A stretch of 64,000 nt of DNA from Trachythela sp. YZ-2020 (taxonomy: Eukaryota > Cnidaria > Anthozoa > Malacalcyonacea > Clavulariidae): contig JADLSH010000382.1 of NCBI GenBank assembly GCA_016169945.1, positions 744,001-808,000 on the forward strand. The letters are read 5' to 3'. The translations under genes and the position numbers were made by a program. Below the pieces are notes generated by a model, which saw only the letters and a list, made by a program, of their open reading frames with translations, did not search any database and was not told the DNA's origin. Position 1 is the stretch's first letter, and the number at the start of each line of letters is the position of its first letter. Positions 905-61,135 of the stretch are shown here, in pieces.

Positions 905-1480
905 CTACAAAAAATGGCAGGACGACAGACAGGATCGCTATAAAGCACATCTTTTCAATATTATTAGATGAAATTATTACAAAGGAAGCTGAAATGGGAA
1001 ATCTGCAAAACAGAAGCCAGTACGGCTGTATGAAGTGGTGCAGCCATAGGGAGCTGAATGCTGTACAATGAGAATGACGGAAATACAAAGGTTGATGGTT
1101 TATCGATGAAGGAAAAAGTGAGGAATGAAGAGATCAGAAGAAGGTGCGGAATGGTAGATGTCGCAGAAAAGGTGGAGGAAGCAAGGCTGAGATGGCAAAT
1201 GGACGTGTAATAAGAAGAGATGAAGGAGATCCGGTAAGAGACGTTATGGGGCAGGAGATAAAAGGAAACAGAGGATTGGACAGACCGAAGAAGAGTTGGA
1301 TGGACTGTGTAAAAGAAGATTTGGATATCAAGGAAATGATAGTGGGCATGGTGAGGAATAGAAAATGATGAAGGACAAGGATCCTAGCAGCCGAACCGCC
1401 CTGGGTCAGTGTGGGAGCAGAGCTGGGTAATGCTACAAGGAGAAGTTTACAAAACCGTTGAGAATACAAGGGCTTGTGGA
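905..1480 (+). pseudogene. LINE 3' end fragment (RT C-terminal tail)
   Basis: Three frames together contain pieces like the tail of endonuclease/RT LINE proteins: a basic stretch, then RGLDRPKKSWMDCVKEDLD at about 1276-1335, then an SRTALGQ-like ending. LINEs of the RTE/jockey type often end in G-R-P-[RK]-K-x-W-x-D-x-[VL]-x-x-D-L. Frame changes and stops show a dead copy. There are no RT motifs, so the assignment rests on this tail alone. Confidence 0.45.
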
Positions 1481-3374
1481 CATTTAACCATGTTTTTCCC
1501 GTCTCTCAAGATTTCTTGTTTTAGTTATGATTTTATATTGATAGTAGGAATATTTTAAGGTTATTTCCTTTAAATTGTGTGCTTCCGAATTTCCCATCTG
1601 ACAACTAGTTTCCTTATAGCTTTCGAGTGCTTCGATGAAATATAAATATAATGTTAAATTTTGTGTATGCACTTCAAATGATAGTAATGTTTTTCACAGT
1701 TATTCTTTCCATATACGGTATTCAATAGGGTTTCGCGACAATAGCATTCTTTGCGTGTATTTTCATACGACTTTTTAACACAAACTGCAGCACCATTTCG
1801 GAAAGACACATTGTTCACAATTTGAAAATATGGACTTTTATGTCTTGTTTCCTCCAATTATAATTTCTGAACTTTGCTTGTAATTGTTTTTAATATCATG
1901 ATTGAAATACGGTCTGTTTTAAAATATTTTAAAACTCGCGAGCCGTATACTTTTAAGGAAAGTTTTACCTGGGTGTTCGCAAACAGTGCAGTAAACAAAA
2001 AACCGCAGGCGAAGCGAGCAAAGGTTGAATATTGTTCAAATCTTTCCAATTTTACTTACAAGAGTGGATACTAAATAGTCTTAGTAGTTAAATAGTTAAA
2101 TAGTCTTAAACAACTAGGACTATGGTGTAGACCCTATGACTACTTTGTAAAGCAAAATAGCGAGTGCAAAAATACATTCGTTATTACTATAATGTGAAAT
2201 GAACCGAATGCTAATATAGTATCAATTATCCATTCCAACATTGTTTGGGACTTATTTGTTAGTTCGTTTTGACGTTATACATGTAAGTCATGGATGTATT
2301 TGTATGTAATATATTCAATAAATAATTCAATAAAATTGATCTATTTTGGTGTGATACAAAGCAGATAATGAAATCAATGCTTTCGGTGAATGTGGAAAAT
2401 TCCCGTCTTTCTTCACCTCATAAAAATATTCTTACCATTGCACTCAGATTAATTCATTATTTTGTATAATACATTAAACAAACCTCGACAATCATTTTCA
2501 TTCACGTTCGTTGATGTAAAAAAAAAATGGTACAAGCTGTCTCCCATTTCTTCCGCTTTGGTTTTCACATATTCATGCTTAAAGTGGCTCGTTGCAGTAA
2601 TAGCAGATAGACGTCATCCTCGCGTGCTCAGCGTGGAAAATTCTTAGTCTCTTGACAAGAGCAGGCGAAGTCATTTTTGAGTTTTCGAGTGTTAATCTTG
2701 CATAGAAAGACGCCGTTATTTTAAATCGTAAATAGTTAAAGTTCAATAACTACTTATGACATTTCGTCAAGTATGTTTTTCACGTACTACCGTTTGTTAT
2801 TGTCAAAATCTGCGACATGTCGCATGTTTGCTTCGATGAAGTTTTTAAACTTTGTATTCGTTACGGCAATGTACAAAATATGCGATATTTTAAAATATCG
2901 TAGGAGCTCTACGTAGGAGCCTTTTCTTAAAAACTGATATTTGAAGTAATTTTACATTTGGTTATTGTGCGGAAATATAGAAAATTTAGGAAATAATGTA
3001 AAAGTACGACATTTCTTAATTTGAATTTTTACCATGACAACGAAGACATTTAACACTTTTTGTTTTTCGTAATATGCATTGTTGTAGTAATTTTGTGGCT
3101 GAGTTTCGTGATCATACCTTACAGGATGAGGAAATAAATGAATGGACCTTAGAGCATATTTACGTGCTATTAAATTAAAACTGTAGGGATCCACACCTTA
3201 AAGCTACTGGTTGCCAATGGCGGGTTAGCGACGCCATTTTCGGAACCGTGATGCATTGCTCTAGCCTGAAAATTCACTTTATTGAGAGAATGGCTCATGG
3301 ATATTGAAACCAAAATGTTAGGACTTCCGACATTGAGGAACGGTTATTGAAAACAAAATATGTTTTTCACCTAC
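1481..3374. other. non-coding, AT-rich, no gene seen
   Basis: Only short accidental reading frames occur here. There is a small inverted repeat around a centre at 1910-1960 (AAATATTTTAAAAC-like) and runs of A. No transposon ends, splice-supported exons or tandem arrays were recognised. It lies downstream (minus strand) of the EGF exon, so part may be an intron or 3' flank of that gene. Confidence 0.4.
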
Positions 3375-10828: not shown

Positions 10829-12072
10829 CGGAGCTTTACAAAAACAATGACTAAAGCGCAGCATTCTTTAAAATGGCGACGAAAACATCGTTCTCACTAT
10901 CACCCGCTCAAAGTGTGCGTGTGTATGCGCTCCCATATATGCACGGCCATGCATCGACCGTCGAACAGAAGCAAAGGATAAATCGAAAATGTAAATTCCG
11001 CATAACACGCTTGGTGAATTTCGAATTACTTCAATTACGTTAGACAAAGGCTTCTTTTTCATTCAATAGAGTGGTACTTGCGTCAAAGACACCCACACGT
11101 ACAGTATGAAAACATTATTATCATAGACTTGCACGAAAATTGTATAAGGACTTCGAAACAATTCGAGATTTTGTTATTCTCAGGAAGATCGGACAATCGC
11201 ATTTTCCTTCAAAATGATACCATTGCTGTAAGCTTCGTGATTCAAAGCTTGGTTTTCAAAATAGAAATCAAGAGCAACGGTATCTCCTACCGTACAGCTT
11301 GCTAGAACAAATATCCAGGGCTGTCTCAAAGCAACGTAATTCAATAATATGGCACGACAATATTTGTGAATTCAAAAAAATGATATATATTTAAAGTTTT
11401 ATATTCAGAAGGAACTATTTCAACAATGTCGATATTCTGTTCAAAAAAACTTCCGTTTTCTATTTTGTTTTTCCGTTGCAACAAACCTTTGCCCTAAAAA
11501 GAAACAGGAGATATATATCATTTTTTTGAATTCACAAATATTGTCGTGCCATATTATTGAATTACGTTGCTTTGAGACAGCCCTGGATATTTGTTCTAGC
11601 AAGCTGTACGGTAGGAGATACCGTTGCTCTTGATTTCTATTTTGAAAACCAAGCTTTGAATCACGAAGCTTACAGCAATGGTATCATTTTGAAGGAAAAT
11701 GCGATTGTCCGATCTTCCTGAGAATAACAAAATCTCGAATTGTTTCGAAGTCCTTATACAATTTTCGTGCAAGTCTATGATAATAATGTTTTCATACTGT
11801 ACGTGTGGGTGTCTTTGACGCAAGTACCACTCTATTGAATGAAAAAGAAGCCTTTGTCTAACGTAATTGAAGTAATTCGAAATTCACCAAGCGTGTTATG
11901 CGGAATTTACATTTTCGATTTATCCTTTGCTTCTGTTCGACGGTCGATGCATGGCCGTGCATATATGGGAGCGCATACACACGCACACTTTGAGCGGGTG
12001 ATAGTGAGAACGATGTTTTCGTCGCCATTTTAAAGAATGCTGCGCTTTAGTCATTGTTTTTGTAAAGCTCCG
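10829..12072. repeat. large palindrome, two 562-bp arms
   Basis: The arm 10829-11390 is the reverse complement of 11511-12072, to the eye practically without mismatch, around a 120-base spacer. Identical translations appear on opposite strands of the two arms, which are a by-product of the symmetry and not genes. Such near-perfect arms mean a recent event or gene conversion. It sits between inverted copies of the 1.1-kb repeat, so the structure is an inverted repeat within an inverted repeat. Confidence 0.9.
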
Positions 12073-53183: not shown

Positions 53184-55268
53184 TAGTCTAGGACCTGTAT
53201 AGGAGTTTGTATGCGTTTCATTTAGCACAGGCAATCTCAACTGTTTTAGGGTAAAATGACCATGGCGGTCAACATGGCATATGTGCGAAAACCTGAATCC
53301 GGGACGAAAGTCCTGAAACCCCGCCCTGAAACGGCAGTGCCGACATAGCTCTAACTTCCGAAAAGCAGAAGCGACAGCCTTTCTGAAGTGCTTATAGTGT
53401 TTAGAAGGTTGCTTTTAGGGGTAGTTATTGGAAGGAAAAATTTGTCTAAGTATAATATTTTACAAGAAAATGACCATGCACCACCCCAGGTCAACTGCTA
53501 ATTATCCATGAAATAACTAATATACCTGGCAGAGATTAAATTTTCTTATTTCCTAACAATTTTTATCATCGGATGAAAAATTTAATATAATTATTGTACA
53601 TTTCATATTAGGATTGACATTGTTTTGTTTAAATATAATACATTTTATTCCACTTACCCCCCACCAAAACACGATTTCAGCCATATTTTGCCGTCTTGTT
53701 TGCTTTTTATCGCCGAATCTCGCAAGTATCATCCAATTGTTGTACTTTTACATAATGATTGATGGCTAAAGAAGATTTCAACCAAGTTTCGTCAAGTTTT
53801 GAAGCAGTGCAGTGTATTTTATCTTCGATATTGTGTCCTTCGATATTTCGTCAAATAGCGGCCATTGCAATGCCTCGCCGCTTGTCTTCCCGATAAATGC
53901 CACTTCTTCGTCTTCATATGTATTTAGATTACAGTATCCAAGAGTACTTCATTGTAGAATAGTCCCAATCGAAAAACTAAGTAGTATAGTCCACTTGAAA
54001 GGAAAAAACCTCCATAACAAATTTAGGATCAGAATCAAAGACACAAGTTTAAAAATAATTTGAAAGTCACGCGCAATCTTCGCGAAAACTCTCGTGGCTG
54101 CTTGACAGGGGGCAAACATTTTCACGAAACGCTGATTCGCCACCACAGAACCCAGTAAATATATTATATTTATTGTATTTTTATGATTTATGATAAAAAC
54201 AATAGAAAATACGCAAATATTTATTGGTTTTTTTCATAAATCATAAAAATACAATAAATATAATATATTTACTGGGTTCTGTGGTGGCGAACCAGCGTTT
54301 CGTGAAAATATTTGCCCCCCCCCTCTGTCAAGTAGCCACGAGGAGTTTTCGCGAAGATTGCGCGTGACTTTCAAATTATTTTTAAACTTGTGTCTTTGAT
54401 TCTGATCCTAAATTTGTTATGGGAGGTTTTTTCCTTTCAAGTGGGACTATACTACTCTAGTTTTTCGATTGGGACTATTCTACAATGAAGTACTCTTGGA
54501 TACTGTAATCTAAATACATAATATGAAGACGAAGAAGTGGCATTTATCGGGAAGACAAGCGGCGAGGCATTGCAATGGCCGCTAATTTGACGAAATATCG
54601 AAGGACACAATATCGAAGATAAAAAACACTGCACTGCTTCAAAACTTGACGAAACTTGGTTGAAATCTTCTTTAGCTATCTATCATTATGTAAAAGTACA
54701 ACAATTGGATGATACTTGCGAGACTCGGCGATAAAAAGCAAACAAGACGGCAAAATATGGCTGAAATCGTGTTTTGGTGGGGGGTAAGTGAAATAAAATG
54801 TATTATATTTAAACAAAACAATGTCAATCCTTATGAAATCTACAATAATGATATTAAATTAAGCATAGTTTTTCATCCCATGATAAAAATTGTTAGGAAA
54901 TAAGAAAATTTAATCTCTGCCAGGTATATTAGTTATTTCATGGATAATTAGCAGTTGACCTGGGGTGGTGCATGGTCATTTTCTTGTAAAATATTATACT
55001 TAGACAAATTTTTCCTTCCAATAACACCCCTAAAAGCAACCCTTCTAAACACTATAAGCACTTCAGAAAGGCTGTCGCTTTTGCTTTTCGGAAGTTAGAG
55101 CTATGTCGGCACTGCCGTTTCAGGGCGGGTCATTTTCAGGACTTTCGTCCCGGATTCAGGTTTTCGCTCATATGCCATGTTGACCGCCATGGTCATTTTA
55201 CCCTAAAACAGTTGAGATTGCCTGTGCTAAATGAAATGCATACAAACTCCTATACAGGTCCTAGACTA
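53184..55268. mobile_element. 2.1-kb foldback element, ~1-kb arms, GAA duplication
   Basis: Arms 53184-54200 and 54227-55268 are inverted copies with few differences, around a 26-base spacer. The ends are TAGTCTAGGACCTGTATAGG and its complement. GAA flanks both sides (53181-53183, 55269-55271), and the gypsy RT frame reads straight on across one GAA, so the borders are exact. There is no coding capacity; frames in the arms are mirror images. The class is unclear: 3-bp duplication without CACTA or Harbinger-type ends. Confidence 0.9.
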
Positions 55269-57211: not shown

Positions 57212-57445
57212 ATGGATAGAAGAGAGAGACACAATGAGAGGCATAGAAGACACAGGGAAAGGCGTAGGGAAGCCGACATCAGGCTCCGAGAAGAGCTCGT
57301 CAGGCTCAGAGAGTTTTATAATTTTATGTTAGAGAATGATTTTGAACTTGTTGAACTATATGAGATGGAGAGAAGATACAGGGAGCAACCGGAAGCCTGG
57401 CAGCAAGATACGGACGGCCTAGAAGACATTCTACGGGGAGCTTGA
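57212..57445 (+). CDS. small Arg/Glu-rich protein, unknown
   Basis: 77 codons from ATG 57212. The first 28 residues are almost all R, E, H and D (RRERHNERHRRHRERRRE), then a helix LREELVRLREFYNFML, ending ILRGA. It looks like a basic nucleic-acid-binding tail followed by a coiled coil. An A/T-rich 3' flank with AATAAA-like signals follows. Unrecognised; could also be chance, but the composition shift at its start and end supports a gene. Confidence 0.45.
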   Translation: MDRRERHNERHRRHRERRREADIRLREELVRLREFYNFMLENDFELVELYEMERRYREQPEAWQQDTDGLEDILRGA

Positions 57446-57759
57446 TGAATAAAATATAAAAAATAAATAAAAAAAATAAAAAAACACGGTCCTTTTAAGA
57501 ACCACCAAAACTATAAGAGAAAATCAATGTAAACTGAGTGTTGGTATAAAGAGATGTTTTTTATCCGTCGATTTTGGGATGTATCAAGCACGATATTCTA
57601 CAACCGGAGCTGCAAGTGAAATATGTAAGTGTTTTCTGTTTTTATTCAATATTTATTAGTTTGTGAAAATGCTACAGCCCTAAGGGAAATGTTTTCTGTG
57701 TAATGAATGCGTTTAAGTGTAAATATCGATTTATTCGTTCAAATTCTTTTTTATAAAAT

Positions 57760-57943
57760 GTGGTGATTCCTAAAGGAACCTGTTTTTTTGTTTTTTCAGA
57801 CTTGGTTTTCCAACCACAGCCCGTACACCTCTACTTCCACTTTGGGGCAGTGCTGATACGCGTTGGCTGTCGGTGTTTCACACAGGTTTCTAACCAAATC
57901 AGTTTGCCCATCAGTGTTTCGGCCTTAGGACAACTAAAACGTT
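57760..57943 (-). pseudogene. KGG/EKDLL protein, C-terminal part
   Basis: The minus-strand frames carry SCPKAETLMGKLIWLETC and then YQHCPKVEVEVYGLWLEN, continuing the gene whose N-terminal part is at 60445-60834. A frameshift lies between the two blocks. Cys, His and acidic residues suggest a metal-binding or nuclease-like fold, which is inference. The gene is split by the nested 2.5-kb element with one AACGTT copy on each side. Confidence 0.6.
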
Positions 57944-58061
57944 AGTAGCTTATCCGGGCTATATAGCGAGTAATTAGTATTCAAAATGGCGTCGCGTGCG
58001 TCATATTGGGAAGTGACGTCATTTTGCGTACGTACAGGATTAGAAGTAATTAGTATTTGTG

Positions 58062-58224
58062 TGACGTCATTTTGCGTACGTACAGAGAGAAAATAAAGAA
58101 CAACAGAAAGTTTTGTGTTGGATTTTATTTAAATTACACACAATAATTTAAATGTTTCTTCTAGTAAGAGTCGTTTTATAGTTTTGACTTTATTGTTCTA
58201 TAGCCATGGTTTCTTTAGACTCAT
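58062..58224. repeat. inner inverted repeat, left copy
   Basis: GACGTCATTTTGCGTACGTA, then AATAAAGAACAACAG, TTGTGTTGGATTTTATTTAA, AATTTAAATGTTTCTTCTA and AGCCATGGTTTCTTTAG, all mirrored at 59428-59570. On the minus strand it reads as the 3' end of a gene (KETMAIEQ then stop, AATAAAG). Confidence 0.8.
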
Positions 58225-58245
58225 CTTCGTGCAAATTCACCCACT

Positions 58246-58443
58246 TCATTGCGCGTTTTTCGCCATTTTCATTGGAGCTTCTGTGGAGCTTCTGTAAAGC
58301 TTCTGTAAAGCTTCTGTGAAGCTTCTGTGGAGCTTCTGTGAAGATTCTGTGGAGCTTCTGTGGAGCTCTCCAAAATATGAGTAATTAGTGACGCTTGGAT
58401 GCATGCATAAATTAACACAGACAAAGATTAACGTTTTAAACAA
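58246..58443 (-). pseudogene. minus-strand ORF remnant with tandem repeat
   Basis: A 12-base-type repeat AGCTTCTGT(A/G)(A/G) at 58275-58370 gives a repeated LHRSSTE-like peptide. Farther on, the minus strand leads in another frame to a short end, KETMAIEQ. I think this is the remnant of a second, inverted copy of a gene end, not a functional protein. Confidence 0.3.
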
Positions 58444-58514
58444 TGTATTCCTTTAGGTATAACAATTATTTACACAATATTAAACATATTGTCCAGCTTT
58501 TACACTGTTTTCTA

Positions 58515-58625
58515 TGCGAGGGTCGATGTGAGGTCGCCGTGAGGTCGATGTAGGGTCGATGTGAGGTCGATGTGAGGTCGATGTAGGGTCGATGTAGGGT
58601 CGATGTGAGGTCGATGTGAGGTTGA
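58515..58625. repeat. 11-bp minisatellite GGTCGATGTGA
   Basis: About ten units of GGTCGATGTRRG-type sequence in tandem. A single further unit lies at 58686-58700. Confidence 0.85.
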
Positions 58626-58829
58626 TGGCCAAACAAGCCAAACAAACAGGCAGGAAAGGAAGTAAAATAAACTTCTAACTCTCTGTGAGGTCGATGTGGG
58701 GTACCGATTCAAGTCCGGTTCGGTAGATGTAAACATTTCGGGGTTCTGTAGGGGTTCCCTTGGGGTTCTCTCGGAGTCGACCTATGAGCGCAAGGAAGCG
58801 TCTGCTCATAAAAGTGCCGTGCTGCTGGA

Positions 58830-59384
58830 ATGAGCTGCAAATTTTGCGGAAAACAATTTAGCCGCGGTTATAATCTACGCAGACACGAAAAGGAATACTG
58901 TCCACTACGCGAACAACAGAGAGATATGTCAGAAACAGAAAGTCAGATAATGGATTCCGAAGACTATGATTCAACAACTTCAACTCATGGGTCTGAGTCA
59001 GAAACTGAGGATCCTTGGATACCAATGATAGAAGAAGCAAAGCAAAGAAGTAATACAGCTTTTGAGGAAATGAAAGAGATCCTTATAAACAGCGGTCTTG
59101 ATGAGCAATCTGCTACCGACAACGCTTACACCAATATTCTGCTTGAACTCCAGAAGGAACTTGAAAATATTTATATGCAACGTCTCCTGTGGATGAAACA
59201 ACTAAAGAAAGATCCCGTACATAGAAAAATAATGAAGACAAAGGATGCGCTTGTGGAAAGCGATGACTTTGATCCAGAAGAAGCTTTAGAAGCAGCTATT
59301 GATAAGAGGAAATTTCTTATAAAAAGACTTTTAAAGGATTACGATTTTGATGAGGAAGATGATGACGCAGAAAGCGATGATTAA
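58830..59384 (+). CDS. C2H2 zinc-finger protein of the miniature element
   Basis: 184 residues from ATG 58830. An N-terminal C2H2-like finger, CKFCGKQFSRGYNLRRHEKEYC (C4, C7, H20 and C27 in place of the last His), is followed by an acidic Ser/Glu stretch and EDPWIPMIEEA. A conserved helical part follows: LWMKQLKKDPVHRKIMKT, FDPEEALEAAIDKRKFLIK and an acidic tail. I recall this domain pattern in many uncharacterised cnidarian and fish proteins. Intact, with a TATA-like CATAAAAG at 58807 just upstream. Probably a DNA-binding regulator; the function is inferred. Confidence 0.8.
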   Translation: MSCKFCGKQFSRGYNLRRHEKEYCPLREQQRDMSETESQIMDSEDYDSTTSTHGSESETEDPWIPMIEEAKQRSNTAFEEMKEILINSGLDEQSATDNAYTNILLELQKELENIYMQRLLWMKQLKKDPVHRKIMKTKDALVESDDFDPEEALEAAIDKRKFLIKRLLKDYDFDEEDDDAESDD

Positions 59385-59427
59385 ATTCGGTCAAACGGTC
59401 TAATACGGTCCGAGACTTTGCTAAAGA

Positions 59428-59570
59428 AACCATGGCTATCGAATAATAAAGCCAAAACTTATTAGAAGAAACATTTAAATTGTTGTGTGTAATTTAAATA
59501 AAATCCAACACAAAATTATCTGTTGTTCTTTATTTTCTCTCTGTACGTACGCGTACGTACGCAAAATGAC
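59428..59570. repeat. inner inverted repeat, right copy
   Basis: Complement of 58062-58224. It forms the 3' flank of the zinc-finger gene, so that gene's polyadenylation signal (AATAAA at about 59498) lies within the repeat. Confidence 0.8.
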
Positions 59571-59712
59571 GCCATTTTGAATATTTAATTATACCGTATA
59601 AATTATTCTCAAAATAATGGTTATTATTATCTTAGTAGAAGTGGAAACACCGTTATAAATTCTATGCGTACGTACGCAACGCCATGTTACCATAGTAACG
59701 AATCTCTTTTTT

Positions 59713-59726
59713 TATATAAATAAATA
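59713..59726 (+). promoter_or_regulatory. TATA-box region of the bZIP-like gene
   Basis: TATATAAATAAATA lies about 55-65 bases upstream of ATG 59781. It follows CGTACGTACGCAACGCC, similar to the element's CGTACGTAC boxes. Confidence 0.5.
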
Positions 59727-59780
59727 AACGTTTTGACCTTCACCTTAAATTTGGGCAAGTTTGGGCAAGTTTTTTAAATC

Positions 59781-60203
59781 ATGGAAAAATTAACATATGC
59801 TCAACGCGAAGCACAACGTGCAAAGAATAGTCGCCAGAAGAAAAAAGACGAGTTAACAGAACTAAGGGCACTTCGTCAGTACTTACTAAAGGAAAACCCC
59901 GACCAGTTAAGAAATTTCGAAGCCCAATATCCGAACAGCAACGCACCTCAAACCACAACAACAACACCATTTGAAGTTATGGCAAAACCTCAAGTTGCAA
60001 GTGAACCATTTGAGAACAATTCGCCTCAAATCAATGTTTTTCCTCCAGAACTGCCTCAAGTCGCCACTGGACTGCCTCAGAACAACCTTTTAGGGTGCAC
60101 ATTCGATGATGAGATAAACAAACTGTTCAGTTGTATCAATAAGGATTTATTTCCATACGATAAATACATGGAAGACCTTTTTAACATTAATATGGATTTT
60201 TAG
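59781..60203 (+). CDS. bZIP-like protein of the miniature element
   Basis: 140 residues from ATG 59781. The start QREAQRAKNSRQKKKDELTE resembles a bZIP basic region (N..xx..SR..KK), followed by LRALRQYLLKEN, a short imperfect leucine heptad. The middle is Gln/Pro/Asn-rich. It ends in an acidic-aromatic segment (FDDEINKLFSCINKDLFP, MEDLFNINMDF) like a transactivation domain. The next gene up is the zinc-finger protein on the same strand. AATAAA lies at 60301. Likely a transcription factor; the short zipper leaves doubt. Confidence 0.65.
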   Translation: MEKLTYAQREAQRAKNSRQKKKDELTELRALRQYLLKENPDQLRNFEAQYPNSNAPQTTTTTPFEVMAKPQVASEPFENNSPQINVFPPELPQVATGLPQNNLLGCTFDDEINKLFSCINKDLFPYDKYMEDLFNINMDF

Positions 60204-60444
60204 TATTTATATTTTTAGTATTTACATACATTTGAAGAACATTTATATATTTAAAAAACTTTTGTTATTCTAAAGTATGTTTACAACAGTTCTATGTTGA
60301 CAATAAAAATTTGAAAACAATTTGCTCATTTTCCTCTTCGTGCGCACACCCGTGCGCACGCGACGCCATTTTGAATACTAATTACTATCGTGCGCACGCC
60401 ATTTTGAATACTAATTACTCGCTATATAGCCAGGATAAGCTACT

Positions 60445-60834
60445 AACGTTCCAGGTTAATGGGGGGATGTTGAGGTCTGCTAACAGGTCTTTTTCAGAGT
60501 GTCCCCCTTTGTATGCGACGACGGATTTTGAGTTTTTGCGCGTAGTATGGTAGAGATTCGTGATTATTTCTTCTAGGGTTGATAGAGGGAAAGCGTCAAC
60601 TCTAGCGGGCACATCAAACGGCAGTTTGTGAATATAAGTTTGCGCGTAGTTGCACGTCCTTCGGTCTTTGGCTGTCAGATCACTCCAGCGTAGGCCAGCA
60701 TCAAAAAAGAAGGATTGGGCTGTAACGTCTCCAACTTTCAGGGAGCCTAATTCTTTACAGAAAGTTTTCTGTTTACAAAGTATCCGTCCATGTCTATGAT
60801 CGCGACGACATTTTGAAATTTGAAAGCCAGACAT
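60445..60834 (-). pseudogene. KGG/EKDLL protein, N-terminal part
   Basis: From ATG (complement of 60834) it encodes FFFDAGLRWSDL, DRRTCNYAQTYIHKLPFD, FPLSTLEEIITNLY, and then VAYKGGHSEKDLLADLNIP. I recall this set of motifs in uncharacterised proteins of invertebrate Polinton-type and related elements; biochemical function is unknown to me. A one-base change in a C-run at 60461-60466 shifts the frame just before the nested element. The rest lies at 57760-57943. Confidence 0.6.
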
Positions 60835-60923
60835 TTTGAAAATATTCAATGTACATGTATACTCATTGATCTGTCTTATATCGACTCCTATAGGATGACA
60901 TCAGTCTAAAAATAGCATTGTCG

Positions 60924-61028
60924 CATAACATTTGTCGCATAACATTTGTCGCATAACATTTGTCGCATAACATTTGTCGCATAACATTTGTCGCATAACA
61001 CTTGTCGCATAACATTTGTCGCATAACA
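60924..61028. repeat. 14-bp tandem array CATAACATTTGTCG, copy 2
   Basis: About seven units, same orientation as the array at 55525. It is followed by AATGAG and AAGTATAAATTGCAAGTATAA, again a TATA-like motif. Minus-strand frames through it give a repeated MRQMLCDKCYATN peptide, which is an artefact of the repeat. Confidence 0.9.
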
Positions 61029-61135
61029 TGAATATTAATGAGAAGTATGTTCGACGTGATCTTAAGTTTGTGCAAGTATAAAGTGCAAGTATAAATTGCA
61101 AGTATAAAGTGCGATAAGTATTGTATTAAACTGAA

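What the first reader, a model, noticed from the sequence alone, without database searches (positions are those of the whole stretch)
57944..60444. Miniature Polinton-like element carrying only two regulator-like genes
Exact 6-bp duplication AACGTT, 50-bp inverted ends starting AGTAGCTTATCC, and an interrupted gene that continues on both sides prove a discrete 2.5-kb unit. Polintons are usually 10-25 kb with polymerase, integrase and capsid genes. This one has just an intact C2H2 zinc-finger gene and an intact bZIP-like gene in the middle of an otherwise decayed region. It may be a satellite that uses a helper Polinton's integrase and replication and brings its own transcription control. I know of no described family with this layout.
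Basis: partly seen in the sequence, partly recalled or inferred. Interest (0 to 1): 0.88.

Follow-up and report, generated by a model that had tools for sequence, protein, structure and literature searches.

The report
Chimeric miniature Polinton, ATPase gene lost
A 2.5-kb jumping DNA in a large eukaryote-like genome turns out to be a cut-down hybrid: one part comes from tiny two-gene Polinton-type elements that carry a zinc-finger gene and a virus-type DNA-packaging motor gene, the other part is the end of a full-size Polinton.

Summary
The unit is real: 57944-60444, inverted ends beginning AGTAGCTTATCC, 6-bp duplication AACGTT, inserted in a broken gene that 15 of 15 relatives match on both sides. 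Its Polinton class was tested: a 14.3-kb element in the same genome with a DNA polymerase B gene has the same kind of ends, 6-bp duplication and subterminal repeats. But no two-regulator family was found. That layout matched end to end at only two places, which share flanks, so one insertion event. In 21 of 21 other fetched loci with the zinc-finger gene, an A32-like packaging ATPase gene, or a piece of it, lies beside it; the complete ones (8 sites) are 2.7-4.0 kb with 6-bp duplications. In the window element most of that gene (1.3-1.5 kb) is deleted, its last codons remain, and from a shared 16-bp repeat onward the right third is a full Polinton's end, bringing the "bZIP-like" gene, whose bZIP assignment is weak. 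The zinc finger is C2HC-spaced. The wider find is the mini-Polintons coding only a zinc-finger protein and a packaging motor: candidate satellites that might redirect packaging. Helper use is inferred, not shown; genome-wide counts could not be made.

The parts
57938..57943 (.). left target-site duplication AACGTT
   Evidence: 6-bp duplications in related copies
60445..60450 (.). right target-site duplication AACGTT
57944..60444 (+). whole mobile unit, 2501 bp; second copy at G000:C390:15689421-15691945, 95%
57944..57992 (+). left terminal inverted repeat, AGTAGCTTATCC...
   Evidence: (I2)
60396..60444 (-). right terminal inverted repeat
   Evidence: (I2)
57969..58218 (+). left subterminal arm with iterated units (AGTAATTAGTATTCAAAATGGCG; CGTACGTAC) and two TGACGTCA sites at 58014 and 58062; largely the inverse of 59421-59583
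58190..58261 (-). remnant of the 3' end of the packaging-ATPase gene (KWVNLHEDES..KETMAIEQ stop)
   Evidence: compared with the L093 ATPase C-terminus
58249..58273 (.). approximate scar of the 1.3-1.5-kb ATPase deletion (element positions ~306 to ~330)
   Evidence: collinear mapping on L112, L120, L121, L105
58268..58627 (.). two 11-bp tandem arrays in the spacer that lies between ATPase and zinc-finger genes in relatives
58830..59384 (+). intact C2HC zinc-finger gene, 184 aa; 505 relatives in the protein collection
59408..59446 (+). second copy of the ATPase C-terminal codons (VRDFAKETMAIE stop) inside the right arm
59421..59583 (-). inner right arm, the original subterminal region of the zinc-finger mini-element
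59568..59583 (.). 16-bp repeat GACGCCATTTTGAATA at which the mini-element sequence changes into Polinton right-end sequence
59584..60444 (.). segment derived from a full Polinton's right end
   Evidence: 95-97% to C82 and C389 ends over element positions 1765-2476
59781..60203 (+). intact 140-aa gene with a basic N-terminal helix ('bZIP-like'); also at the ends of larger Polinton-type elements
60463..60846 (-). right-hand part of the interrupted gene (5' part)
57799..57941 (-). left-hand part of the interrupted gene (3' part)

Best explanation
The element is a non-autonomous, chimeric derivative of a family of miniature Polinton-type elements. Complete members (2.7-4.0 kb, 6-bp duplications) code for two proteins only: a C2HC zinc-finger protein and an A32-like genome-packaging ATPase, both reading outward. 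In the window's lineage most of the ATPase gene was deleted, and a crossover in a 16-bp subterminal repeat put the end of a full Polinton, with the 140-aa basic-helix gene that sits there, in place of the right terminus (most simply before the insertion; see the third rival). The unit inserted in a copy of a repeated gene, giving AACGTT twice; that locus was later copied to contig C390. Inferred: movement was in trans, using the integrase and protein-primed polymerase of resident Polintons, which share the terminal motif and subterminal repeats. The zinc-finger protein most likely binds the family's repeats as its own regulator or recruiter. In the complete minis the ATPase most likely drives packaging of the small genome into a helper's capsids.
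For: Ends and duplications: 7 mini loci had the exact end motif at both ends; 6 of 7 have perfect 6-bp duplications and 1 has 5 of 6 (two of the seven, L093 and L104, are one site). A looser scan of 22 loci gave 8 two-ended sites, 7 perfect and 1 with one mismatch, whose flanks do not match one another. A 14,344-bp element on C82 starts AGTAGCTTAACC, has AGCGTA on both sides, an open 1347-codon polymerase frame (PF03175, E 8.9e-48) and the 140-aa gene near both ends. Subterminal AAAATGGCG first occurs at position 40 or 45 at both ends of 6 of 9 minis (window included) and in 5 of 5 Polinton-type ends. ATPase: PF04665 at 5.7e-7 and 8.9e-7, above cutoff; present whole or in part in 21 of 21 fetched zinc-finger loci other than the window and C390. 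Its remnant in the window and the collinear gap. Crossover: left of 59568-59583 97.8% to L093 over 884-1648, right of it 95-97% to C82/C389 over 1765-2476. Median dN/dS: ATPase 0.28 (18 pairs), zinc finger 0.39 (121), 140-aa gene 0.55 (11).
Against: No integrase or capsid gene was identified in the fetched elements (only chosen ORFs were scanned), and no step of movement, binding or packaging is shown. Window copy and C390 are one event, so mobility of the chimera itself rests on a single insertion. The window's terminal 25 bp differ from those of C82 and C389, so the exact Polinton parent was not found. Ends of L120, L121 and L123 lack the shared subterminal repeat. Many minis have a broken gene, and the C390 copy's zinc-finger ORF is shortened to 163 aa. 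dN/dS used only open ORFs and non-independent pairs; 57 of 207 pairs were dropped (dS of 0.02 or less, or not computable).
Confidence: 0.85

Rival explanations
1. Dedicated two-regulator Polinton satellite family: zinc finger plus bZIP factor form its control circuit and the helper supplies the rest.
For: Both ORFs intact; the 140-aa protein is modelled with a long basic helix; two TGACGTCA sites in the left arm, a motif that I recall as a target of CREB/ATF-type bZIP proteins.
Against: Among the listed matches only two places cover the whole element and they share flanks. In the other fetched loci the genes are apart: the zinc finger with the ATPase, the 140-aa gene at Polinton-type ends. TGACGTCA is absent from the 5 ends that carry the 140-aa gene outside the chimera. 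bZIP pattern and Pfam models fail.
Confidence: 0.05
2. Plain internal deletion of one full-length Polinton that carried all these genes; a dead, MITE-like remnant.
For: One deletion is clear (ATPase) and the right end is a Polinton end.
Against: No zinc-finger gene was found in the fetched parts of the four larger loci with the 140-aa gene (C82, C389, C151, C281). The minis' ATPase is only 24-33% identical to the ATPase of the C281 locus. Complete minis with both ORFs open exist (L112, L120, L121).
Confidence: 0.08
3. Variant of the best explanation, not exclusive of it: the chimera formed after insertion. A zinc-finger mini-element sat at the site and its right end was overwritten by gene conversion from a Polinton.
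For: Shared repeats give ample homology; the terminal 25 bp of both ends still match each other although C82 and C389 ends differ there.
Against: The converted tract would have to stop just inside the terminus; both present copies (window and C390) carry the same chimera, so nothing shows an earlier state.
Confidence: 0.25
4. About function only, not exclusive of the best explanation: ATPase and zinc finger are passive cargo, not satellite functions; the minis spread as any short non-autonomous element would.
For: Many minis have broken genes (for example the zinc fingers of L093 and L104; the ATPases of L106, L114 and L123).
Against: dN/dS of 0.28 and 0.39 among open copies; 505 zinc-finger relatives, the best 120 of them 59-76% identical; ATPase active-site motifs kept in 6 of 6 aligned copies, 6 of the 7 open ones.
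Confidence: 0.35

Closest known systems
Polinton/Maverick elements (vertebrate Mavericks, PMC8097293, passages read)
   Same: 6-bp duplications; ends of AGT type: the paper gives (AGT)2//(ACT)2 as the commonest motif, here AGTAGC//GCTACT; inverted repeats; same-genome relative with a type B polymerase
   Different: 2.5 kb; no polymerase, integrase, protease or capsid gene
Adintoviruses and kin with zinc-finger regulator genes (PMC11071296, passages read)
   Same: some are reported to carry zinc-finger regulator-like ('Ziftr') genes
   Different: viral gene sets; the zinc-finger genes there were not compared with this one
Phage satellites of the PICI type (recalled, no call)
   Same: small element with its own regulator and its own packaging component, dependent on a helper; analogy for the complete minis only
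   Different: bacterial; here no helper dependence, induction or particle is shown
Transpovirons and virophages (recalled, no call)
   Same: small elements tied to larger viruses
   Different: different gene sets; no giant virus is known to be involved here
IS3EU / GingerRoot DNA transposons (PMC10045372, passages read)
   Same: 6-bp duplications, integrase-like enzymes in the autonomous members
   Different: complete IS3EU families have TA..TA ends; here AG..CT
Composite-like transposons such as KolobokP (PMC9587614, passages read)
   Same: modular architecture
   Different: KolobokP has long terminal direct repeats and its own transposase

Membership tests
Polinton/Maverick, autonomous element | 6-bp target-site duplication | tested here: met
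   AACGTT here; 6 of 7 two-ended relatives perfect, 1 with 5 of 6 (7 loci, 6 sites); AGCGTA for the polymerase-bearing C82 element
Polinton/Maverick, autonomous element | AG..CT (AGT-type) termini with inverted repeats | tested here: met
   AGTAGC..GCTACT; motif per PMC8097293
Polinton/Maverick, autonomous element | protein-primed type B DNA polymerase | tested here: not met
   no room in the element: after 184 and 140 aa the longest ATG-started ORF is 74 aa; a type B polymerase is present in the C82 element (protein priming not tested)
Polinton/Maverick, autonomous element | retroviral-type integrase | tested here: not met
   no ORF of fitting length in 57944-60444; not identified among the ORFs scanned from larger elements either
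Polinton/Maverick, autonomous element | capsid, protease and packaging ATPase genes | tested here: not met
   only the last codons of an ATPase remain
Zinc-finger + ATPase mini-Polinton (family seen here) | C2HC zinc-finger gene reading outward toward the terminal repeat | tested here: met
Zinc-finger + ATPase mini-Polinton (family seen here) | A32-like packaging ATPase gene | tested here: not met
   deleted, remnant 58190-58261; so a derivative, not a full member
bZIP transcription factors | basic-region signature (pattern recalled) | tested here: not met
   pattern search empty; Pfam bZIP_1 only in the C82 copy at E 0.11, 13.1 bits against a cutoff of 27.6
bZIP transcription factors | continuous basic helix with leucine zipper | tested here: inconclusive
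   single-sequence model, helix 6-38 at pLDDT about 90-96, whole-model pTM 0.31; only about two leucine heptads by eye
Satellite of a Polinton (helper-dependent, packaged) | moves or replicates only with a helper | not testable with these tools
   inferred from shared ends and missing enzymes
Satellite of a Polinton (helper-dependent, packaged) | recognition sequences shared with a resident helper | tested here: met
   AGTAGCTTA ends; first AAAATGGCG at 40 or 45 at both ends of the window element, of 5 of 8 other minis and in 5 of 5 Polinton-type ends; absent in L120, L121, L123. That these are recognition sequences is inferred
IS3EU | TA..TA termini | tested here: not met
   ends AG..CT; definition from PMC10045372

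The most novel reading that the evidence does not exclude
The complete two-gene mini-Polintons are genuine satellites of Polintons in a eukaryotic genome: they borrow the helper's integrase, polymerase and capsid, but bring their own packaging ATPase and their own DNA-binding protein so that helper particles are filled with the small genome, a eukaryotic counterpart of phage satellites that redirect packaging. The window element would be a derivative that has traded its ATPase side for a helper's end and with it a helper gene.
Probability: 0.3. Interest if true: 0.87.

Novelty: new variant of a known kind. Interest (0 to 1): 0.62.

Why it matters
Polintons are usually discussed as large self-replicating elements. 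A resident family of 3-kb elements that keep only a zinc-finger protein and a packaging motor, with signs of purifying selection on both genes, would point to a parasite of Polintons inside a eukaryotic genome and would give indirect evidence that Polinton-type particles are made there, which is an open question (PMC8097293, abstract as listed: particles have not been observed). The window element adds a clear case of end exchange at a 16-bp subterminal repeat, a way by which small elements can change helpers or pick up helper genes.

Tried and rejected
Viral contigs: neither gene of the element, nor an alignment of 27 zinc-finger proteins, nor the mini ATPase (alone or as alignment A3) found a relative. 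A 15-letter end motif gave 75 viral contigs; I did not open them: 14 fixed bases seemed too few for a collection of that size (my estimate, no control run). A 20-letter subterminal motif gave 0. Prokaryote contigs: 0 relatives, 0 motif hits. The 140-aa protein had 0 relatives among 12 candidates. Zinc-finger model: no structural match at E<=0.001 among viral or PDB structures. The ATPase had no meaningful PDB sequence match (3 at E 0.21-0.96). Rfam: 0 matches in the window. IS3EU was considered and rejected by its termini. TGACGTCA as a target of the 140-aa protein was considered and set aside: the motif is in 6 of 9 minis checked (window included; first 450 bases of each end) but in 0 of 5 Polinton-type ends that carry that gene (first 800 bases). 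Paper searches, 10 in all: none of the listed titles and abstract starts showed a zinc-finger + packaging-ATPase mini-Polinton; a search for six names of non-autonomous Polintons gave 0 papers. Subscription journals and Repbase are not in that library. Of papers I saw passages (PMC8097293, PMC2836005, PMC10045372, PMC9587614, PMC11071296, PMC6431247, PMC12220804) or outline and abstract (PMC12324425). The organism is not known to me from any call; a cnidarian is my guess from recall.
Full report
What is there. The window is G000:C280:744001-808000 of a 578-Mb, 396-contig genome. At 57944-60444 lies a 2501-bp unit with inverted ends (48 of 49 bases match) and AACGTT on both sides. It sits in a gene read on the minus strand; 15 of 15 protein relatives found with the right-hand piece also match the left-hand piece at E<=0.01, with residues running on across the site. 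AACGTT is palindromic, so on this copy alone the duplication could be 6, 4, 2 or 0 bp. Two ORFs are intact: 184 aa with one C2HC finger, and 140 aa.

Copies in the genome. A search with the whole element reported 200 matches, 40 of 1805 first-look candidates having been scored, so counts are lower bounds and part of the rows was not listed. Among the listed rows only two places match from end to end: the window and C390:15689421-15691945 (95%). Their flanks are alike for about 0.7 kb of the 1.5 kb compared on each side (90 and 94%) and share the duplication, so they are one insertion copied later with its surroundings. The other listed rows match only the zinc-finger part, the spacer, the 140-aa-gene part, or the ends.

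The zinc-finger half. In 21 of 21 an ORF or fragment of a second gene lies beside it (17 with long matches, 4 with only 35-59 N-terminal residues). Several loci are copies of one site with shared flanks (L093/L104; L108-L111; L115-L117, which compared 14 of the 21). The second gene codes for about 430 aa with GPSQSGKT and IIILDD motifs, kept in 6 of 6 aligned copies (6 of the 7 open ones), and hits Pox_A32, the poxvirus packaging-ATPase family, above cutoff (E 5.7e-7 and 8.9e-7); PHROGs gives a terminase large subunit at 1.2e-5. Its N-terminus carries a finger resembling a 113-aa protein of the C82 Polinton (44% over 36 residues). In the complete elements both genes read outward, and the last ATPase codons recur in both arms. 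Of 29 loci scanned, 7 minis besides the C390 copy had the exact end motif at both ends; 6 of these 7 have perfect 6-bp duplications and 1 has 5 of 6. A looser scan of 22 loci gave 8 two-ended sites of 2.7-4.0 kb, 7 perfect, with unlike flanks. Both ORFs are open over near full length in L112, L120, L121 and also L122. Others are broken: two stops in the zinc-finger frames of L093 and L104, split ATPase frames in L104, L106, L114 and L123, among others.

Selection. Among ORFs that are still open (at least 330, 150 and 115 aa), median dN/dS is 0.28 for the ATPase (7 ORFs, 18 pairs, median dS 0.41), 0.39 for the zinc finger (19 ORFs, 121 pairs, dS 0.04) and 0.55 for the 140-aa gene (6 ORFs, 11 pairs, dS 0.036). 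3, 50 and 4 pairs were dropped (dS of 0.02 or less, or not computable). Pairs are not independent and open ORFs were chosen, so this is support, not proof. The zinc-finger protein has 505 relatives; the 120 listed are 59-76% identical over 85% or more of its length, which suggests wide spread. No relative was found for the 140-aa protein in the same collection (0 of 12 candidates).

The Polinton half. The 140-aa gene lies at the ends of larger elements: C82 (both ends), C389, C151 and C281. The C82 element runs from 11798615 to 11812958 (14,344 bp), has AGTAGCTTAACC ends and AGCGTA on both sides, carries the 140-aa gene near both ends, and has a 1347-codon open polymerase frame (PF03175, 8.9e-48). 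The C281 locus has, behind an altered copy of the 140-aa gene, a GRF finger gene, a broken ATPase 24-33% identical to that of the minis, and an ORF like the adenovirus protease, below Pfam's cutoff (E 0.0021). I identified no integrase or capsid gene; I did not fetch all of these elements, and only chosen ORFs were scanned. That C389 and C151 are Polintons rests on their ends and the shared gene.

How the window element arose. Left side: element positions 1-306 match the mini's terminal repeat and positions from 330 on match the spacer before the zinc finger; in L112 the corresponding points lie 1.39 kb apart, with the ATPase gene between, and the other minis mapped give a net loss of 1.3-1.5 kb. 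The window keeps KWVNLHEDES..KETMAIEQ-stop, the ATPase's end, on the minus strand at 58190-58261, and VRDFAKETMAIE-stop at 59408-59446. L090 and L091 show the same contiguous left part without either gene, so the deletion is probably older than this copy. Right side: up to GACGCCATTTTGAATA (59568-59583) the sequence follows the mini L093 (97.8% over 884-1648); from there on it follows the C82/C389 right ends (89-90% over 1602/1608-1823, 95-97% over 1765-2476). The terminal 25 bp match the window's own left end rather than C82 or C389, so the exact Polinton donor, or a later correction of the terminus, remains open.

Mechanism. Shown: shared end motif, shared 6-bp duplication length, subterminal repeats shared by most minis (6 of 9) with 5 of 5 Polinton-type ends, no room for polymerase, integrase or capsid genes in minis of 2.5-4.0 kb, and open frames of two genes in several minis. 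Inferred: the Polinton integrase inserts them, and protein-primed replication copies them from the shared ends. The C2HC protein probably binds the subterminal repeats; in its model residues 64-127 are helices at high confidence, the whole has pTM 0.42, and no solved or viral structure matches at E<=0.001. For the ATPase, packaging is the function known for its family, so a complete mini could steer its own DNA into helper capsids. For the window copy, without ATPase, only mobility by borrowed enzymes remains; its 140-aa gene is best seen as part of a borrowed end. That protein has a predicted basic helix and, by eye, an acidic C-terminus, but fails the bZIP pattern and Pfam.

Verdict. What deserves follow-up is the zinc-finger + packaging-ATPase mini-Polinton family. 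In 10 full-text searches of open-access papers I saw no description of it among the listed papers; subscription journals and Repbase could not be searched.

Noticed in passing
G000:C82:11798615-11812958 (L085, L086): Polinton with the 140-aa gene near both ends, so a protein-coding gene is duplicated by the inverted repeats; the right side also holds a 2.3-kb insert with tandem repeats and a fragment of the gene family that the window element interrupts.
   Followed up: partly
window 57258-61127 and G000:C390: The stretch shared by C280 and C390 ends about 0.7 kb beyond each side of the element; the interrupted gene (relatives of about 145-210 aa, no Pfam name, 15 found) recurs in the genome beside minisatellites and may be carried by a repeat of its own.
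   Followed up: partly
L090 (G000:C163:626000-631000) positions 1152-3182: Head-to-head copies of the left arm and spacer, about 2 kb, without either gene: a fold-back, MITE-like derivative of the same family.
   Followed up: no
window 53184-55268 and 10829-12072: Large self-complementary stretches (2.1 kb at 95%, 1.2 kb at 94%), that is long hairpin-type inverted repeats.
   Followed up: no
L107, L112, L114 ends: Up to 15 GTACGTAC units within 450 bp, mostly 13 bp apart, in the terminal repeats of minis, and TGACGTCA at position 76 or 114; neither motif is in the 5 Polinton-type ends checked.
   Followed up: partly
A3, mini ATPases: The C-terminal half is nearly identical among copies while the N-terminal finger region differs strongly, which suggests exchange or conversion of gene parts among minis.
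   Followed up: no
G000:C147/C166, C49/C188/C197/C198, C241 (two places)/C96: Same mini insertions found at two to four places with shared flanks: segmental copies or uncollapsed haplotypes in the assembly.
   Followed up: partly
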